Assembly: GCF_900104265.1 (NCBI RefSeq)
Contig: NZ_FNJJ01000004.1
Location: forward strand, 62,001-126,000
Direction: 5' to 3'
DNA length: 64,000 nt
From: Ectopseudomonas guguanensis
GTDB lineage: Bacteria > Pseudomonadota > Gammaproteobacteria > Pseudomonadales > Pseudomonadaceae
Positions 1,197-59,339 of the stretch are shown in pieces; position 1 is the first letter of the stretch; the number at the start of each line of letters is the position of its first letter. The notes under the pieces were generated by a model, which ran no database searches, was not told the DNA's origin, and saw only the letters and a list, made by a program, of their open reading frames with translations. The position numbers were made by a program, and so were the translations under genes.

Positions 1197-2618
1197 ATGA
1201 ACGAGCGCCAATGGATTTGCGTGGCCAGCGCATGCTTGCTGCTGGCCAGCACCAACCTGTTCGCCCACGGCTATATCAAGCAACCTGAAGCACGCGGCTA
1301 CCTGTGCAAACTGGGTGAGAACAGCGGATGCGGTGCAGTGCAATGGGAACCGCAAAGCCTGGAAGGCTACTCCGGCTTCCCGCAGAGCGGCCCCGCCGAT
1401 GGCCAGATCGCCAGCGCCGGGCTGGCACAATTCGCCCCCCTCAATGAACAGACCGTCAGCCGCTGGGCCAAACGCCCCATTCAGGCGGGACCGACGAACT
1501 TCACCTGGCGCTTCACCGCCAACCACGTCACGCGCAACTGGCGCTACTACATCACCCGCCCCGACTGGTTGGCCAATCAGCCGTTGAACCGCGCCGCGTT
1601 CGAGCTGGTGCCGTTTTGCGTGGTCGATGGCGGCATGCGCCAGCCGCCGCAGGAAGCCACCCACAACTGCGATGTACCGCCGCGCGAAGGCTATCAGGTG
1701 ATCCTGGGCGTCTGGGAAGTGGGCGATACGCCGATGAGCTTCTACAACGTGATCGACGTGATGTTCGGCGATGTGATGACACCGCCCGATCCGTCCGCCT
1801 GGCACGTCAAGGGCATGCTCTACCCCTCGGTGGATCTGCAAGTCGGCGACCAGGCGCTGACCCGCGTATTCGATGCCAGCGGTGAGCGCAGTGACTTGCA
1901 GACTCGCCTGCAGATTGAAACCAGCGAGCAGGGCCAGCGCAACCAGTGGACCTACCTGCTGGCCAGCCGGATCAACCAGCAACAGAGCCAGCTCAAAGCC
2001 GGTCAGCGCGGCAGCAACGGCGCAATTGAGCCGGTGTACGGCCAGAACAGCCTGTATGCTCGCGCCGACAGCGGCATCCAGCGCATCGAGGTGCAGATCG
2101 ACAAGGCCACTGCACCTGACCACGAACTGTTGGTCGACGGCCTGCAGCCCAGCTATCGCATCCGCGGCAGCCAGCTGCGGCTTGACTTCAACGTCACCGC
2201 CGTGGGGGCGCTGCAGATCAGCAGCTACCTCTACGACCACGACGGCAATGCCAAAGGCTTTGCCGCCGCCGAGCTGACCAACAGTAGCCAGCCCTTGAGC
2301 ATAGAGGTCGACAACCCTGCGCCCGGCCATCACCAACTGGTGATCAGTGCCAGAGTGGCCGGCGGCGAGGAGCTGTTTCAGAAAACCTTCGACATGATGT
2401 TCGTCGCAGACGACGAGAGCGCCACCTACGACTTCACCTTCCCTGACGGCCTGCACAGTTACACGGCCGGCACCCGGGTGCTGCAACCCAAGACGGGAAG
2501 GCTGTATCAGTGTCGTCCCTTTCCGCAGAGTGGCTATTGCACGCAATGGTCAGCCGCCTCGACCCAGTTCGAGCCCGGCATCGGCAGCCATTGGCAAGAC
2601 GCCTGGATAGCTGACTGA
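1197..2618 (+). CDS. Secreted AA10 lytic polysaccharide monooxygenase, GbpA-like
   Basis: The 473-residue protein starts with a signal peptide ending at Ala23, so the mature chain begins with His24 (HGYIKQPEARG). This N-terminal His is the first half of the copper histidine brace. The second His is in 'FTANHVTRNW' (His110). The AA10 domain spans roughly residues 24-200, followed by two linker-type domains (about 205-410) and a C-terminal chitin-binding module rich in aromatic residues (about 415-473, ending 'HWQDAWIAD'). That order matches GbpA/colonisation-factor proteins. Expected role: oxidative cleavage of chitin or adhesion to GlcNAc surfaces after type II secretion. The start is supported by an AAGGGA ribosome site. 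It lies within the segment separating creD from creBC. Confidence 0.93.
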   Translation: MNERQWICVASACLLLASTNLFAHGYIKQPEARGYLCKLGENSGCGAVQWEPQSLEGYSGFPQSGPADGQIASAGLAQFAPLNEQTVSRWAKRPIQAGPTNFTWRFTANHVTRNWRYYITRPDWLANQPLNRAAFELVPFCVVDGGMRQPPQEATHNCDVPPREGYQVILGVWEVGDTPMSFYNVIDVMFGDVMTPPDPSAWHVKGMLYPSVDLQVGDQALTRVFDASGERSDLQTRLQIETSEQGQRNQWTYLLASRINQQQSQLKAGQRGSNGAIEPVYGQNSLYARADSGIQRIEVQIDKATAPDHELLVDGLQPSYRIRGSQLRLDFNVTAVGALQISSYLYDHDGNAKGFAAAELTNSSQPLSIEVDNPAPGHHQLVISARVAGGEELFQKTFDMMFVADDESATYDFTFPDGLHSYTAGTRVLQPKTGRLYQCRPFPQSGYCTQWSAASTQFEPGIGSHWQDAWIAD

Positions 2619-2627
2619 GCCAAGCAC

Positions 2628-2656
2628 CGCGCCAGCCGAACTGCCTGGCTGGCGCG
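2628..2656 (+). terminator. Hairpin after the LPMO gene
   Basis: The arms CGCGCCAGCC (2628-2637) and GGCTGGCGCG (2647-2656) pair perfectly over ten bases. They begin 9 bases after the LPMO stop. No T-run follows, so termination is plausible but unproven. Confidence 0.45.
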
Positions 2657-3007
2657 ACCACCCCAATACCCCTGAAAACACCTACGGCACAGGCGCATCC
2701 GCTGCGCCTTGGCGTACCTCTTTGTGGAGCCACAGGCATGCCCAGGCACTGACCCATACCCCCTGACCGCCAGCGTTGCGTGGATCACCCCCTCCCTTTT
2801 CCGGTGTAACCGCAGATCTGGGCCAGGTACCAGCAGCAGTGTTTCCCCTCTCCTTTCGGGCGCCCAAAGGCCGCCTTAGATTTGCTATAAGCTTTTGATT
2901 TTATTGATTTTTTAACACCTTAAAAACGACGAACGGCCTTGGCATTTCGGCACAGTCTCCTAGGGTTCTGACAGCTGCACTACGCGGCACACATTTGGGA
3001 GATAACC
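2657..3007. other. Intergenic region with an AT-rich promoter-like segment
   Basis: About 350 bases without a convincing gene separate the LPMO and protease genes. Most is GC-rich, but roughly 2880-2932 is strikingly AT-rich for this genome, with TATAAG and runs of T and A. This is the natural place for the protease promoter. A GGGAGATAACC ribosome site precedes the ATG at 3008. I could not define a confident -35/-10 pair. Confidence 0.5.
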
Positions 3008-4567
3008 ATGCAAGGATTTCAACGCACCACCGTCTTACTGCTATTGCTCAGCGCAGGCTGCTCGGTCCAGGCCGACGAGAAACCCAGCTTCGCGGCCCAA
3101 GCGCAGATCGCTGTGGACGATCAGCAATCACCGCGCTACATCATCAAATACAAGGAGCTGGCCCCCTCACCGATGAGCCAGGCCAATCAGCCGCAACCCC
3201 TGAGTGCCGGCCGATTCGAAAGCCGCGCCGCCCAGCGCCTGCTCAGCCAGGCCCAGGTGCAACCGCTGATGCATCTGGACAGCCAGGCTGCCAGCGTGGC
3301 GCACCTGAGCCCGGCGCAACTCAAGCAGCTGCAGGCAAACCCGGCGATCGACTATATCGAGCTCGACCCACGCCGCTACCTGATGGCCGAGCAGGTGCCC
3401 TACGGCATCCCCATGGTGCAGGCCGACCTGCTACCGGACAACGCCATTTCCAACATGAAGGTGTGCATCATCGACTCCGGGTACGACCTCGGCCATCAGG
3501 ATCTGCCCTCGGCGGGCATCACTGGCAATGACGGCTATGGCAGCGTCAACAGCGGCAACTGGTATGAGGATGGCGATGGCCACGGCACCCACGTCGCCGG
3601 AACCATCGCCGCGCTGGGCGGCAACAACCTCGGTGTAGTCGGCGTCAGCCCCTCGGGCAATCTGGGGCTGCATATCGTCAAGGTGTTCAACAACAGCGGC
3701 AGCTGGGCCTATGGTTCGGACCTGGTGATGGCCATCCAGCAGTGCCGCGCGGCCAGCTCGACGGTGATCAGCATGAGCCTGGGCGGCGGCGCTTCTTCGA
3801 TAACCGAACGCAATGCCATGGATGCGGCCTACCAGAACGGGGTGCTGGTCGTTGCAGCTGCCGGCAACAGTGGCAACAGCACGCTCTCCTATCCTGCATC
3901 CTATGACTCGGTCGTGTCGGTCGCAGCGGTCGACAGCAGCGGTAATCACGCATCCTTCTCGCAGTACAACAACCAGGTCGAAGTCGCCGCCCCCGGCGTT
4001 GGCGTGCGCTCCACCCTGCCTGGCAACCGCTACGCGAGCTATAACGGCACCTCGATGGCCACACCGCATGTATCGGCGGTTTACGCTCTTGTGTGGAGCC
4101 AGCACCGCCAGTGCACCCCTGCGCAGATTCGCAGGGTGGTCAACATCACCGCCGAAGACCGCGGCACGCCAGGCCGCGACCCCTACTACGGCTACGGCAT
4201 CGTCAAGGCCAAGCGGGCCAGCGACCTGATTGCCCAGCGCGGCTGCGATGTCAGTGATGGCGGCAGTGGTGAAGAGCAGACCTACCCCAACCTCTCCGGC
4301 GCGCGGGGAGCCTGGGTACGCCACAGCGTGGCGGTACCCAGCGGTGCCCGGCGTCTGACGGTGCGGATCAGTGGCGGCAGCGGTGATGCCGACCTTTACA
4401 CCCGCCTGGGCAGCCAGCCCACTACCAGCCAATGGACCTGCCGGCCCTACCTGGAAGGCAATCAGGAAACCTGCATTCAGGAAAATCCTGCCGCCGGCAC
4501 CTGGCATATTGGCGTTATGGGCTATTCCAGCTTCTCTGGCGTGACCCTCTACTGGCGCTACGAGTAG
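3008..4567 (+). CDS. Secreted S8 subtilisin-like serine protease with C-terminal PPC domain
   Basis: The 519-residue protein begins with a hydrophobic leader ending near 'LLSAGC', which could be a Sec signal or a loose lipobox. A propeptide (about 25-135) contains 'RYIIKYKE' and 'IDYIELDPRRYL', typical inhibitor I9-like features. The catalytic triad is visible as Asp156 (IIDSGYD), His192 (GHGTHVAGT) and Ser349 (NGTSMATPH), with the oxyanion Asn287 (AAAGNSGNS). The last 85 residues ('RLTVRISGGSGDADLYTR') form a pre-peptidase C-terminal domain, normally removed after secretion. Function: extracellular proteolysis, substrate unknown. It sits between the LPMO and an SOS operon and has its own terminator, so it is probably monocistronic. 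Confidence 0.94.
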   Translation: MQGFQRTTVLLLLLSAGCSVQADEKPSFAAQAQIAVDDQQSPRYIIKYKELAPSPMSQANQPQPLSAGRFESRAAQRLLSQAQVQPLMHLDSQAASVAHLSPAQLKQLQANPAIDYIELDPRRYLMAEQVPYGIPMVQADLLPDNAISNMKVCIIDSGYDLGHQDLPSAGITGNDGYGSVNSGNWYEDGDGHGTHVAGTIAALGGNNLGVVGVSPSGNLGLHIVKVFNNSGSWAYGSDLVMAIQQCRAASSTVISMSLGGGASSITERNAMDAAYQNGVLVVAAAGNSGNSTLSYPASYDSVVSVAAVDSSGNHASFSQYNNQVEVAAPGVGVRSTLPGNRYASYNGTSMATPHVSAVYALVWSQHRQCTPAQIRRVVNITAEDRGTPGRDPYYGYGIVKAKRASDLIAQRGCDVSDGGSGEEQTYPNLSGARGAWVRHSVAVPSGARRLTVRISGGSGDADLYTRLGSQPTTSQWTCRPYLEGNQETCIQENPAAGTWHIGVMGYSSFSGVTLYWRYE

Positions 4568-56566: not shown

Positions 56567-56842
56567 GGCGCGCCCGGCTGCCGGCTGGAAGGCCGGCGTC
56601 CGCCTCGCGCGTGGCGCGCTGGCGTCGTGCCCCGCCACTCGGGTGCCATGTCCGCCCGCTCCAACAGAACCGCACCGGCAAACGACCAAACGAGACGCAA
56701 TAGACCCTGCAGGTGAGACAGGCGTCCAACTTAGCGCCCTCGCCTCGCGCCGCTCGGCCTGGCTGTGAAGTGCATAGCGATTTTCTGGCACCCGCGTACC
56801 TAGACTGCCCCCTTTCGCCTTACCAGAGGAAGGAGCAATGGC

Positions 56843-57511
56843 ATGTCAAAACGCTGGATAACCGCCGTGGTCGCCACGGTAATAGTGGGCGGCACCCTGG
56901 GCTTCGTGCTGTCGGAAGCCCTGCAGCCAGAAGGCGACACGGCGCAGAAGCAACCGGCAGGCTCGCCGGCCAGCCCCGCTGCTCCGGCCCTCGCCACCGC
57001 CGCCGCACCGGCCACGCTGCCGGACGCTGAGGGCAGGACGCAAGCGCAACCGAGCGCCAGCACACCGGCAGCGGCGCAAGTGACGCTGTGGCAAGCCGCG
57101 TCGCTGCAGGAAGAGGAAACGGACGGCATCGTCCGTCACCTCACCCAGCTCGATCCTCAGCAGCTGACAACCCTGCATACCGGCCAGGTCGTGGCCTTTG
57201 CCCTGCCGGGACGCCAGCACCCCGTGCGTGCGCGCCTTGGCGAAACCCGCAATACCGCCGGCAGCGCCGTCTGGCATGGCGCCCTGCTCGACGGCGATGC
57301 GATGGAAAGCATGACCCTGGTGCGCGGCACGCTGGAAACCCACATCACCCTCGCCACCCTCGACGGCAGCCTGTCGATCATCGTCGACAACGCCACCGGC
57401 AAGACCGTGATCACCGACGAGAACCAGCTGGTGTTGCGCGCCGACCCCAACGATCACCTGCATTACCAGCACAAGGAACTGCCTCCCCTGCCGCCGCCCG
57501 CCCAGGGCTGA
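56843..57511 (+). CDS. Membrane-anchored propeptide-like partner of the downstream metalloprotease
   Basis: The 222-residue protein has a membrane helix (about 5-27, 'WITAVVATVIVGGTLGFVL'), an Ala/Pro-rich linker (about 35-78), and a globular domain (about 80-205). The domain contains 'QQLTTLHTGQVVAFALPG', 'VWHGALLDGDAMESMTLVRG' and 'ITLATLDGSLSIIVDN', which matches in layout the N-terminal propeptide of M12/M72-type secreted metalloproteases ('gq..lplPdG', 'W.G.l.g', 'G.i.t.dG'). The protease gene 37 bases downstream lacks such a propeptide. It may be a trans-acting folding aid or inhibitor tethered in the inner membrane. Homology is by eye only. Confidence 0.68.
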   Translation: MSKRWITAVVATVIVGGTLGFVLSEALQPEGDTAQKQPAGSPASPAAPALATAAAPATLPDAEGRTQAQPSASTPAAAQVTLWQAASLQEEETDGIVRHLTQLDPQQLTTLHTGQVVAFALPGRQHPVRARLGETRNTAGSAVWHGALLDGDAMESMTLVRGTLETHITLATLDGSLSIIVDNATGKTVITDENQLVLRADPNDHLHYQHKELPPLPPPAQG

Positions 57512-57548
57512 TGCACCTCTCTTACCCCCCCGCACAAGGATCGCAGAC

Positions 57549-59339
57549 ATGAAGAACGTGCAATGGTTATCCGCTCTGGCCCTGGCTCTGGCCGCCCATC
57601 ACGCCCAGGCCAGCCCCGAGACCGTCGATATCATGGTGCTCTACACCAAGGACGCCCAGGCCCTGCCCAATGGCCGCGACATCGACGCGCGCATCGCCAG
57701 CTACATTGAGTACACCAACAACGCCTACGCCAAGAGCGGGGTCAACCTGCGCCTGCGCCTGGTGCACAAGCAGCTGCTCGACTGGGCCGACTACTACGAC
57801 GTGTCATCGGCCAACCTCAACAAGTTCACCTACGACACCCGCGTGCAGCGTCTGCGCGAGCAGTACGGCGCGGACCTGGTGCAGCTGATCAACCGCACCA
57901 CCCAGGGGCAGGGCTACGGCGTCTGCGGCATCGCCTGGATGGGCACCGGGCCGAAGAACAGCGACCGCTTCAACAGCGGCGCCAAGGAGATGGCCTACGG
58001 CCTGACCGGGGTCGACTGCAGCCTCAGCACCTTCGCCCACGAGGCCGGCCACAACATGGGTCTGCGCCACTCCTACGAGCAGGATCTGCAGGAAGGCTAC
58101 TACAACGCCAACGGCCACAACGGCACCCATGAGTGGAGCCGCGGCTACGGCGTGCAGGGTCAGTTCAGCACCATCATGGCCTACCCCCAGGTGTTCGGCG
58201 CGCGCCGCCAGGCGCCGGTGTTCTCCAACCCGCAGCTGCGCGACAGCGAATGCGCCAATCAGGCCTGCGGCCAGCACGAGCTTGCCGACGCGGTGCGTGC
58301 GCTGAACGCCATGGCCAGCCAGATCGCGGCATTCCGCCCGACTCTGGTACCCATCACCGGCAATCCGGGAACCACCAACCCCGGTACGCCGCCGGCCGAG
58401 CTGGCATGGTGCAGCAAACCGGCGCTGCAGGGGCTGGTACGCAATGGCGAATTCACCAACAGCGAAGGCTGGCGTGGACTCTTCGGCCAGTCCGACCTGA
58501 GCCTGGTCAACGTGGCCCTGAACTGCCGCGACAATGCCCTGCAGATGGACGCGCGCGGCTTCGACATCCTGGCCACACCGGTCAGCGGCCTGCGTGAGGG
58601 TGTGCAGTATCGGCTGAGGGCCAACAGCATGCTCAAGGCCCGCAACAGCCGCGAAGACGTGCGCCTGGCGATCCTCCAGGAGGGCGTCGACGGCCGCCTG
58701 ACCTACAGCGCGGAGCAGTCGACCAGTCTCTCGGTCAGCGGCAACGAGTTCAGTCGCCTGGAAAAAACCTTCACCTACCGTGCGCCCGCCAACGCGCGCG
58801 AGCTTTATGTGGCGGTCTGGAGCGAAAGCGGCAGCAGCCTGCTGATCGACGAAGTGGAGCTGCAGGAGGTTCAGAGCAACACGCCGCCAGCGGCACCGGC
58901 GCAGTTCGGCTGGGACTTCGAGAGTGGCATCGGCGGCTGGTCCGGTTACCACGGCAGCACGCGAATGAGCACCTACGCCAGCAGCGGTCGCCAGGCGCTC
59001 GAGGCCTACCAGCGCGAGTACGAAGGCTCCGGCGCCAGCGTCAGCCTGCTCGGCAACCTGGAGGCCGGCAAGCGCTACCGCATCGAAGCGGACCTGAGCA
59101 TCGGTCGCAGCGCCTCGGTCAGCGCCGTCGCCTATGCCTACCTCTACGTGGAGGACAGCAGCGGGCGCGGTCAGTACCTGCCGCTCGGTCAACGCAACAC
59201 CCGCGGCGGCAGCTGGAGCAGGCTGCAGCATGAAGTGCAGCTGCCTGCCGGCCCCCTGCGCCGTGCCGAGCTGTTGCTGCTTGGCACGCAACGCAGCCAG
59301 TCGCTGTTCATCGACAACGTCAGCGTGACCCGGCTGTAA
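57549..59339 (+). CDS. Secreted zinc metalloprotease (reprolysin/M12-like) with two C-terminal jelly-roll modules
   Basis: The 596-residue protein has its own signal peptide ('MKNVQWLSALALALAAHHAQA') and goes straight into the catalytic domain ('ETVDIMVLYTKDAQALPNGR'). The metzincin motif is His164-Glu165...His168...His174 ('FAHEAGHNMGLRH') with a Met-turn at Met210 ('STIMAYP'). After a Pro/Thr linker (about 270-290), two beta-sandwich modules follow (about 295-445, 'NGEFTNSEGWRGLFGQ', and 455-596, 'WDFESGIGGWSGYHGS'), resembling CBM4/9-type carbohydrate binding. The usual N-terminal propeptide is missing and appears as the separate upstream gene. Probable role: extracellular proteolysis with surface or polysaccharide targeting. 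Confidence 0.9.
   Translation: MKNVQWLSALALALAAHHAQASPETVDIMVLYTKDAQALPNGRDIDARIASYIEYTNNAYAKSGVNLRLRLVHKQLLDWADYYDVSSANLNKFTYDTRVQRLREQYGADLVQLINRTTQGQGYGVCGIAWMGTGPKNSDRFNSGAKEMAYGLTGVDCSLSTFAHEAGHNMGLRHSYEQDLQEGYYNANGHNGTHEWSRGYGVQGQFSTIMAYPQVFGARRQAPVFSNPQLRDSECANQACGQHELADAVRALNAMASQIAAFRPTLVPITGNPGTTNPGTPPAELAWCSKPALQGLVRNGEFTNSEGWRGLFGQSDLSLVNVALNCRDNALQMDARGFDILATPVSGLREGVQYRLRANSMLKARNSREDVRLAILQEGVDGRLTYSAEQSTSLSVSGNEFSRLEKTFTYRAPANARELYVAVWSESGSSLLIDEVELQEVQSNTPPAAPAQFGWDFESGIGGWSGYHGSTRMSTYASSGRQALEAYQREYEGSGASVSLLGNLEAGKRYRIEADLSIGRSASVSAVAYAYLYVEDSSGRGQYLPLGQRNTRGGSWSRLQHEVQLPAGPLRRAELLLLGTQRSQSLFIDNVSVTRL

What the first reader, a model, noticed from the sequence alone, without database searches (positions are those of the whole stretch)
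56843..59339. Split metalloprotease: propeptide-like domain encoded as a separate membrane-anchored protein
Secreted metzincins of this type normally carry an N-terminal propeptide. Here the catalytic gene begins immediately after its signal peptide, while a protein with the expected propeptide pattern, but fused to a membrane anchor and linker, is encoded 37 bases upstream. This suggests a two-component system in which an anchored partner folds or inhibits the protease at the inner membrane before release.
Basis: inference. Interest (0 to 1): 0.72.

Follow-up and report, generated by a model that had tools for sequence, protein, structure and literature searches.

The report
Separately encoded, membrane-anchored protease prodomain (BamI–Mep72)
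A secreted zinc protease in a Pseudomonas lacks the usual built-in "safety cap", and the cap is instead made by the neighbouring gene as a membrane-tethered protein; the pair itself is already known (BamI and Mep72), but that the partner is a detached cap of the standard kind is, as far as I could find, a new and testable reading.

Summary
Window 56843-57511 encodes a 222-aa protein with an N-terminal anchor and Ala/Pro-rich linker; 37 bases downstream, 57549-59339 encodes a 596-aa metzincin whose catalytic domain follows its signal peptide directly. The genes are orthologues of a published pair: BamI (NF052435, 255 bits, cut-off 180) and Mep72 (NF052434, 757 bits, cut-off 645). For P. aeruginosa it is published that they form an operon, bind each other, that BamI relieves Mep72 toxicity in E. 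coli, and that Mep72 leaves by type II secretion (PMC4222646, PMC4334185). PMC4713064 already lists the partner as a putative membrane-anchored secretion chaperone.

The BamI model (pLDDT 82, core about 90) best matches CpaB, chaperone of the protease CpaA (6o38), then profragilysin zymogens. The BamI profile's only significant non-self hit in 369 genomes is the propeptide of a single-chain metzincin, which itself models as a zymogen. Profile-profile comparisons agree. Split pairs recur in Pseudomonadales, once in reversed gene order. BamI's disordered last ten residues are its most conserved segment. Direct evidence of zinc-site blocking is lacking.

The parts
56763..56782 (.). Vfr/CRP-like site (CTGTGAAGTGCATAGCGATT), 14 of 18 specified positions, 61-80 bases before bamI
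   Evidence: best score in the intergenic region; of 231 same-length tiles of the window only one reaches 14. Also found upstream of L003, L054, L055 (close relatives). Direct Vfr control of this operon is published for PAO1 (PMC4222646); not shown here.
56828..56834 (+). likely ribosome-binding site (GGAAGGA) of bamI
   Evidence: sequence
56843..57511 (+). bamI: membrane-anchored partner, 222 aa
   Evidence: NCBIfam NF052435, 255 bits against cut-off 180; single copy in the genome
56855..56914 (+). BamI residues 5-24, transmembrane anchor
   Evidence: hydropathy 2.1, no lipobox; PMC4713064 predicts TM 5-24 for the PAO1 orthologue
56915..57079 (+). BamI residues 25-79, Ala/Pro/Ser-rich linker
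   Evidence: composition, least conserved part, 0.40
57080..57439 (+). BamI residues 80-199, all-beta prodomain-like domain
   Evidence: AF2 core pLDDT about 90; Foldseek to CpaB and profragilysin; profile match to fused propeptides
57440..57508 (+). BamI residues 200-222, disordered C-terminal tail ending LPPLPPPAQG, proposed active-site plug
   Evidence: pLDDT below 50 for most of it, yet last ten residues are the most conserved segment, 0.84 against 0.66 for the beta domain; plug role inferred from CpaB (PMC7542363)
57549..59339 (+). mep72: secreted metzincin, 596 aa
   Evidence: NCBIfam NF052434, 757 bits against cut-off 645; single copy
57549..57611 (+). Mep72 signal peptide (about residues 1-21)
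   Evidence: sequence; catalytic domain families start at residue 23
57612..58340 (+). Mep72 catalytic domain (M12B/reprolysin-like), no propeptide before it
   Evidence: PF13582, PF13688, PF13583
58038..58070 (+). zinc-binding motif HEAGHNMGLRH (residues 164-174)
58170..58184 (+). Met-turn TIMAY (residues 208-212)
58914..59255 (+). carbohydrate-binding module CBM_4_9 (better of two stretches)
   Evidence: PF02018, E 2e-14, two stretches

Best explanation
BamI is the prodomain of a metzincin zymogen, encoded as a separate gene and tied to the inner membrane. Mep72 enters the periplasm through Sec without a prodomain of its own. The BamI beta-domain, held at the membrane by its anchor and a flexible linker, binds the Mep72 catalytic domain in trans, as the prodomain does in cis in single-chain relatives. 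The conserved Pro-rich C-terminal tail then lies in the active-site cleft and blocks it, as the CpaB tail does in CpaA. This keeps the protease harmless in the periplasm and probably helps it fold, until it is handed to the type II secretion system; the anchored BamI stays behind and can be used again. Shown elsewhere for the PAO1 orthologues: operon, complex, relief of toxicity, Xcp-dependent export. Shown here: homology and fold of the domain, recurrence of the split pair, conserved tail. Inferred: tail in the active site, folding role, hand-over and re-use.
For: Fold: best six PDB matches of the BamI model are the six CpaB chains of 6o38 (E 3e-5 to 7e-4, TM 0.58), followed by profragilysins (E 0.03-0.1, prob about 0.99). 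Rosetta stone: the BamI profile's only non-self hit with E below 0.001 in 369 genomes is the N-terminal propeptide of a 517-aa single-chain metzincin; an orthologue of it is the third-ranked non-self hit (E 0.03). That protein's model aligns along both domains (335-345 columns) with profragilysin zymogens and also matches ADAM17 zymogens, and its propeptide has the same order of strands and helix as BamI. Profile-profile: BamI to distant split partners E 1.5e-7; those to fused propeptides 3.8e-12; BamI directly to fused 2.7e-5. Context: 19 of 19 Mep72 genes have bamI next to them; distant split pairs in other genera and one other family; swapping paralogous partners always worsens the match of the two distance matrices, 0 of 63 swaps as good. 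A T2SS secretin (GspD) is in this genome. Published: complex, toxicity relief, T2SS export (PMC4334185); CpaB tail blocks the CpaA catalytic site (PMC7542363).
Against: Direct BamI-to-fused similarity is modest (probability 74%, 18% identity), and no sequence search links BamI to CpaB or any PDB chain. One of 200 shuffled controls for the distant-split comparison gave a score above the real one; it did not recur in 500 further shuffles (maximum 19.8 against 70.3), but I could not explain it. I could not model the BamI-Mep72 complex, and no zinc-binding residue in the tail is identified. BamI was refolded from inclusion bodies in the published pull-down. Some related proteases have neither propeptide nor a partner I could find, so lack of a propeptide does not always mean a detached one.
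Confidence: 0.74

Rival explanations
1. BamI is a plain inhibitor unrelated to prodomains, which only neutralises Mep72 that stays in the periplasm, as AprI does for AprA. It has no part in folding or export.
For: This is how the pair was named and compared in PMC4334185: coexpression relieves toxicity in E. coli, and the authors liken BamI to AprI.
Against: No AprI structure is among the listed best 50 fold matches of BamI; CpaB and zymogens are. AprI is not membrane-anchored (general knowledge), BamI is. The profile links BamI to propeptides.
Confidence: 0.12
2. BamI is mainly a secretion chaperone (CpaB type): it stabilises Mep72 and presents it to the type II machinery, and blocking the active site is a side effect.
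For: Fold match to CpaB; CpaB is needed for CpaA stability and secretion (PMC7542363, PMC4713064); PMC4713064 lists the PAO1 partner in this class; GspD is present.
Against: Overlaps with the best explanation rather than excluding it, so the two confidences do not add up to a partition. No secretion data for a bamI mutant. The tail is the most conserved part, which points to active-site occupation as a main function.
Confidence: 0.3
3. The fold match reflects only a common small beta-sandwich or calycin-like fold, and the pair is a coincidental neighbour of the propeptide type.
For: Retinol-binding proteins and clathrin domains also appear lower in the list; sequence identity is 9-16%.
Against: The top 18 matches are all metzincin chaperone or fragilysin-type zymogen chains, and the independent sequence-profile hit falls in exactly the propeptide of a related metzincin.
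Confidence: 0.05

Closest known systems
BamI-Mep72 (PA2782-PA2783) of Pseudomonas aeruginosa
   Same: Orthologous genes above curated cut-offs, same order and short gap, same domains; published operon, complex, toxicity relief and T2SS export
   Different: Gap 37 bases here, 78 in PAO1 (PMC4222646). The prodomain relationship is not stated in the papers I could read.
CpaB-CpaA of Acinetobacter (chaperone and secreted metzincin, PDB 6o38)
   Same: Anchored periplasmic partner, cognate T2SS-exported metzincin, same fold; CpaB C-terminal tail blocks the active site (PMC7542363)
   Different: No sequence similarity of BamI to CpaB detected by phmmer or profile; Mep72 matches the CpaA family model at 48 bits against a cut-off of 750, over the catalytic domain only; Mep72 has C-terminal carbohydrate-binding modules
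Prodomains of single-chain metzincins (profragilysin, ADAM17, bacterial reprolysin-like proteases such as L117)
   Same: Fold and secondary-structure order, position relative to the catalytic domain, profile similarity
   Different: There it is part of the same chain and is cut off; here it is a separate, membrane-anchored protein
Lipase-specific foldases (Lif/LipB)
   Same: N-terminal anchor, Ala/Pro-rich linker, periplasmic domain, cognate T2SS enzyme next door
   Different: No foldase family or structure match; different client
AprI inhibitor of the metzincin AprA
   Same: Gene next to its metzincin; suppresses activity in the producer
   Different: Not among the listed fold matches; AprA leaves by type I secretion (PMC4334185); no anchor (general knowledge)

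Membership tests
BamI family (NF052435) | Equivalog score above 180 bits over the full model | tested here: met
   255 bits, model 1-226 of 226
Mep72 family (NF052434) | Equivalog score above 645 bits over the full model | tested here: met
   757 bits, model 1-573 of 573
Metzincins (M12B/reprolysin-like) | HExxHxxGxxH zinc motif and Met-turn | tested here: met
   HEAGHNMGLRH 164-174, TIMAY 208-212; PF13582 E 6e-24
BamI-Mep72 pair | Physical complex and relief of protease toxicity | not testable with these tools
   Published for PAO1 orthologues (PMC4334185)
Metzincin prodomain | Prodomain fold | tested here: met
   Foldseek to profragilysin, prob about 0.99 but E 0.03-0.1; same element order as the fused homologue
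Metzincin prodomain | Sequence homology to propeptides in the same chain as a metzincin | tested here: met
Metzincin prodomain | Part of the same polypeptide as the protease | tested here: not met
   Separate ORFs in different reading frames, 37 bases apart
Metzincin prodomain | Residue coordinating or covering the catalytic zinc | not testable with these tools
   No complex prediction available; tail is only a candidate
CpaB chaperones | CpaB fold | tested here: met
   Six CpaB chains rank first, TM 0.58
CpaB chaperones | Detectable sequence homology to CpaB | tested here: not met
   phmmer and profile searches of PDB sequences do not list CpaB
Anchored T2SS chaperones (class of PMC4713064) | Adjacent to the effector gene, N-terminal TM, periplasmic C-terminal region | tested here: met
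   periplasmic topology is inferred
Anchored T2SS chaperones (class of PMC4713064) | Required for secretion of the effector | not testable with these tools
   No bamI mutant secretion data found
Lipase-specific foldases | Lipase chaperone family match | tested here: not met
   No such Pfam match up to E 10
AprI-type metzincin inhibitors | AprI fold | tested here: not met
   No such entry among the 50 best fold matches listed

The most novel reading that the evidence does not exclude
BamI, CpaB and the distant anchored partners found here are one class: metzincin prodomains detached from their proteases and tied to the inner membrane, where each acts in trans as a reusable foldase, active-site plug and type II secretion escort. 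The conserved C-terminal tail is the plug.
Probability: 0.55. Interest if true: 0.62.

Novelty: new member of a known kind. Interest (0 to 1): 0.45.

Why it matters
The gene pair is known, but its partner has been described as an inhibitor with unfolded regions (PMC4334185) or as a putative chaperone (PMC4713064), without an origin. If it is a detached prodomain, inhibition and chaperoning become one activity with a clear evolutionary source, BamI and CpaB become related cases, and the mechanism can be tested with a short tail deletion. It would also show how a one-use propeptide can become a reusable anchored factor in bacteria that export enzymes through type II secretion.

Tried and rejected
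Pfam gives no family for BamI, and PDB sequence searches give only chance matches; only structure comparison and profile-profile comparison were informative. The search used the uncorrected alignment, a single wrong residue in one of 19 rows. The search with the whole L117 protein was mostly filled by its calcium-binding repeats, but gave more fused homologues. The genome-contig scan found only two close relatives. The short Vfr half-site pattern of PMC4222646 matches everywhere at two mismatches (362 matches) and says nothing. The promoter scan found nothing. The paper with the CpaA-CpaB structure is not held, so CpaB facts come from PMC7542363. I did not fetch CpaA or CpaB sequences from Acinetobacter. 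The AprI-like reading was considered and ranked low because AprI is absent from the listed fold matches.

Full report
The observation. Two ORFs lie at the stated coordinates on the + strand: 56843-57511 (222 aa) and 57549-59339 (596 aa), separated by 37 bases. The first has a single hydrophobic segment near its start, an Ala/Pro/Ser-rich linker and a C-terminal domain. The second has a signal peptide followed directly by a reprolysin-like metzincin catalytic domain and C-terminal carbohydrate-binding modules.

What the genes are. NCBIfam names them: BamI, 'biofilm-associated metzincin protease inhibitor' (255 bits, cut-off 180), and Mep72, 'biofilm-associated metzincin protease' (757 bits, cut-off 645). 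Both are single-copy in this genome. The closest named relatives of BamI are in Pseudomonas alcaliphila and Pseudomonas sp. P818 (83-84% identity). Published work on P. aeruginosa shows that the two genes form an operon bound by Vfr (PMC4222646), that they are biofilm-induced, that Mep72 leaves through the Xcp type II system, that Mep72 alone is toxic in E. coli, and that BamI relieves this and binds Mep72 (PMC4334185). A survey of type II substrates lists the same partner (as 'Hypothetical (PA2872)', evidently PA2782) among putative membrane-anchored chaperones with a TM segment at 5-24 (PMC4713064). The two-component idea is therefore not new. The papers I could read do not say what BamI's domain is.

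Test of the propeptide idea by structure. Against 350,542 PDB chains the first six matches are the six CpaB chains of the CpaA-CpaB complex 6o38 (E 3e-5 to 7e-4, TM 0.58). The next twelve are fragilysin-type structures (E about 0.03-0.06, probability 0.98-1.00), and an ADAM17 zymogen appears at rank 32 with a poor fit. The fragilysin matches are not significant by E-value alone; their weight comes from being the whole upper part of the list below CpaB. The tool does not print target residue ranges, so that the match lies in the prodomain half is an inference from the all-beta fold and from the next test.

Test by sequence. A profile of BamI and distant split partners was run against 369 gammaproteobacterial genomes. 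Besides the window itself there is one hit below 0.001: the N-terminal propeptide of a 517-aa single-chain metzincin (G340, L117, E 7e-4). Its orthologue in the same genus is the third-ranked non-self hit (E 0.03). The single-chain protein was then modelled (pLDDT 78, pTM 0.85). It aligns over 335-345 columns, through both domains, with several profragilysin zymogens, and it also matches ADAM17 prodomain-metalloproteinase structures. Its propeptide has the same succession of elements as BamI: strand, short helix, then seven strands. Profile-profile comparison gives E 1.5e-7 (BamI to distant split partners), 3.8e-12 (distant split partners to fused propeptides), 2.7e-5 (BamI directly to fused) and 1.2e-9 (both split groups to fused). 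Column shuffles gave no score as high, except one of 200 in the second comparison. That outlier, 131 against 70, is unexplained; in 500 further shuffles the maximum was 19.8.

Distribution. In 198 genomes of the family, 13 carry Mep72 above cut-off, in 19 copies, and every copy has bamI directly upstream. Four genomes of one genus carry two divergent operons head to head, so the pair is duplicated as a unit. The distance matrices of BamI and Mep72 catalytic domains correlate at 0.97, and none of 63 swaps of paralogous partners does as well; linked inheritance alone could produce this, so it shows only that partners are not exchanged. More distant proteases with other C-terminal modules have an anchored partner of the same design (L037-L041), and so does one in another family of the order (L164). 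In L163 an upstream partner was missing, and a profile search found it directly downstream of the protease. One genome (G533) has both a split pair and a fused relative. In a tree of 38 catalytic domains the split proteases fall into one or two groups (two changes on the best tree; one origin not ruled out), apart from the fused ones. The tree is unrooted. Fission of an ancestral fused protease is my preferred direction because metzincin prodomains are generally fused, but this is inference. A third set has neither propeptide nor visible partner, so the rule is not universal.

Mechanism. BamI's last ten residues (LPPLPPPAQG) are disordered in the model but are its most conserved segment: mean column identity 0.84, against 0.66 for the beta domain and 0.40 for the linker, over 16 non-redundant sequences. 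In CpaA-CpaB the chaperone's C-terminal tail blocks the catalytic site in the manner of a zymogen (PMC7542363). The simplest reading is that BamI's beta domain docks on the Mep72 catalytic domain and its tail fills the cleft. I could not model the complex. A type II secretin gene (GspD) is present in the genome, so the published export route is available.

Regulation. A Vfr/CRP-like site (14 of 18 positions) lies 61-80 bases before bamI; of 231 same-sized tiles of the window only one scores as high. It is also found before bamI in three close relatives. The spacing differs from that published for PAO1 (-58 to -38), so this is only a candidate.

Verdict. The part that appears new is the link from BamI to metzincin prodomains and CpaB.

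Noticed in passing
L008/L018, L010/L019, L009/L020, L007/L021 (G122, G040, G108, G052): Two complete bamI-mep72 operons arranged head to head in four genomes of one genus; the pair is duplicated as a unit.
   Followed up: partly
L163 (G595), protease about 1934-3325, partner open frame from 3379: Split pair with the anchored partner downstream of the protease instead of upstream; found by profile after no upstream partner was seen.
   Followed up: yes
L042 (G135): Single-chain, membrane-anchored relative with propeptide and catalytic domain in two overlapping frames; looks frameshifted or broken.
   Followed up: no
L134 (G628), 698-aa open frame: Fused relative with a long, probably coiled-coil insert between prodomain and catalytic domain, and a Pro-rich stretch (LPPPES) after the prodomain that recalls the BamI tail.
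   Followed up: no
L095, L098, L103 and relatives (family f193): A clade of small secreted metzincins (HELGHLMGLNHG) with neither propeptide nor visible partner; several start a few bases from, or overlap, a gene that looks like a phosphotransferase.
   Followed up: no
window 56763-56782: Vfr/CRP-like palindromic site upstream of bamI, shared with close relatives.
   Followed up: partly
PMC4713064, table of putative chaperones: The partner of Mep72 is printed as PA2872; the gene next to PA2783 is PA2782, so this looks like a misprint.
   Followed up: no
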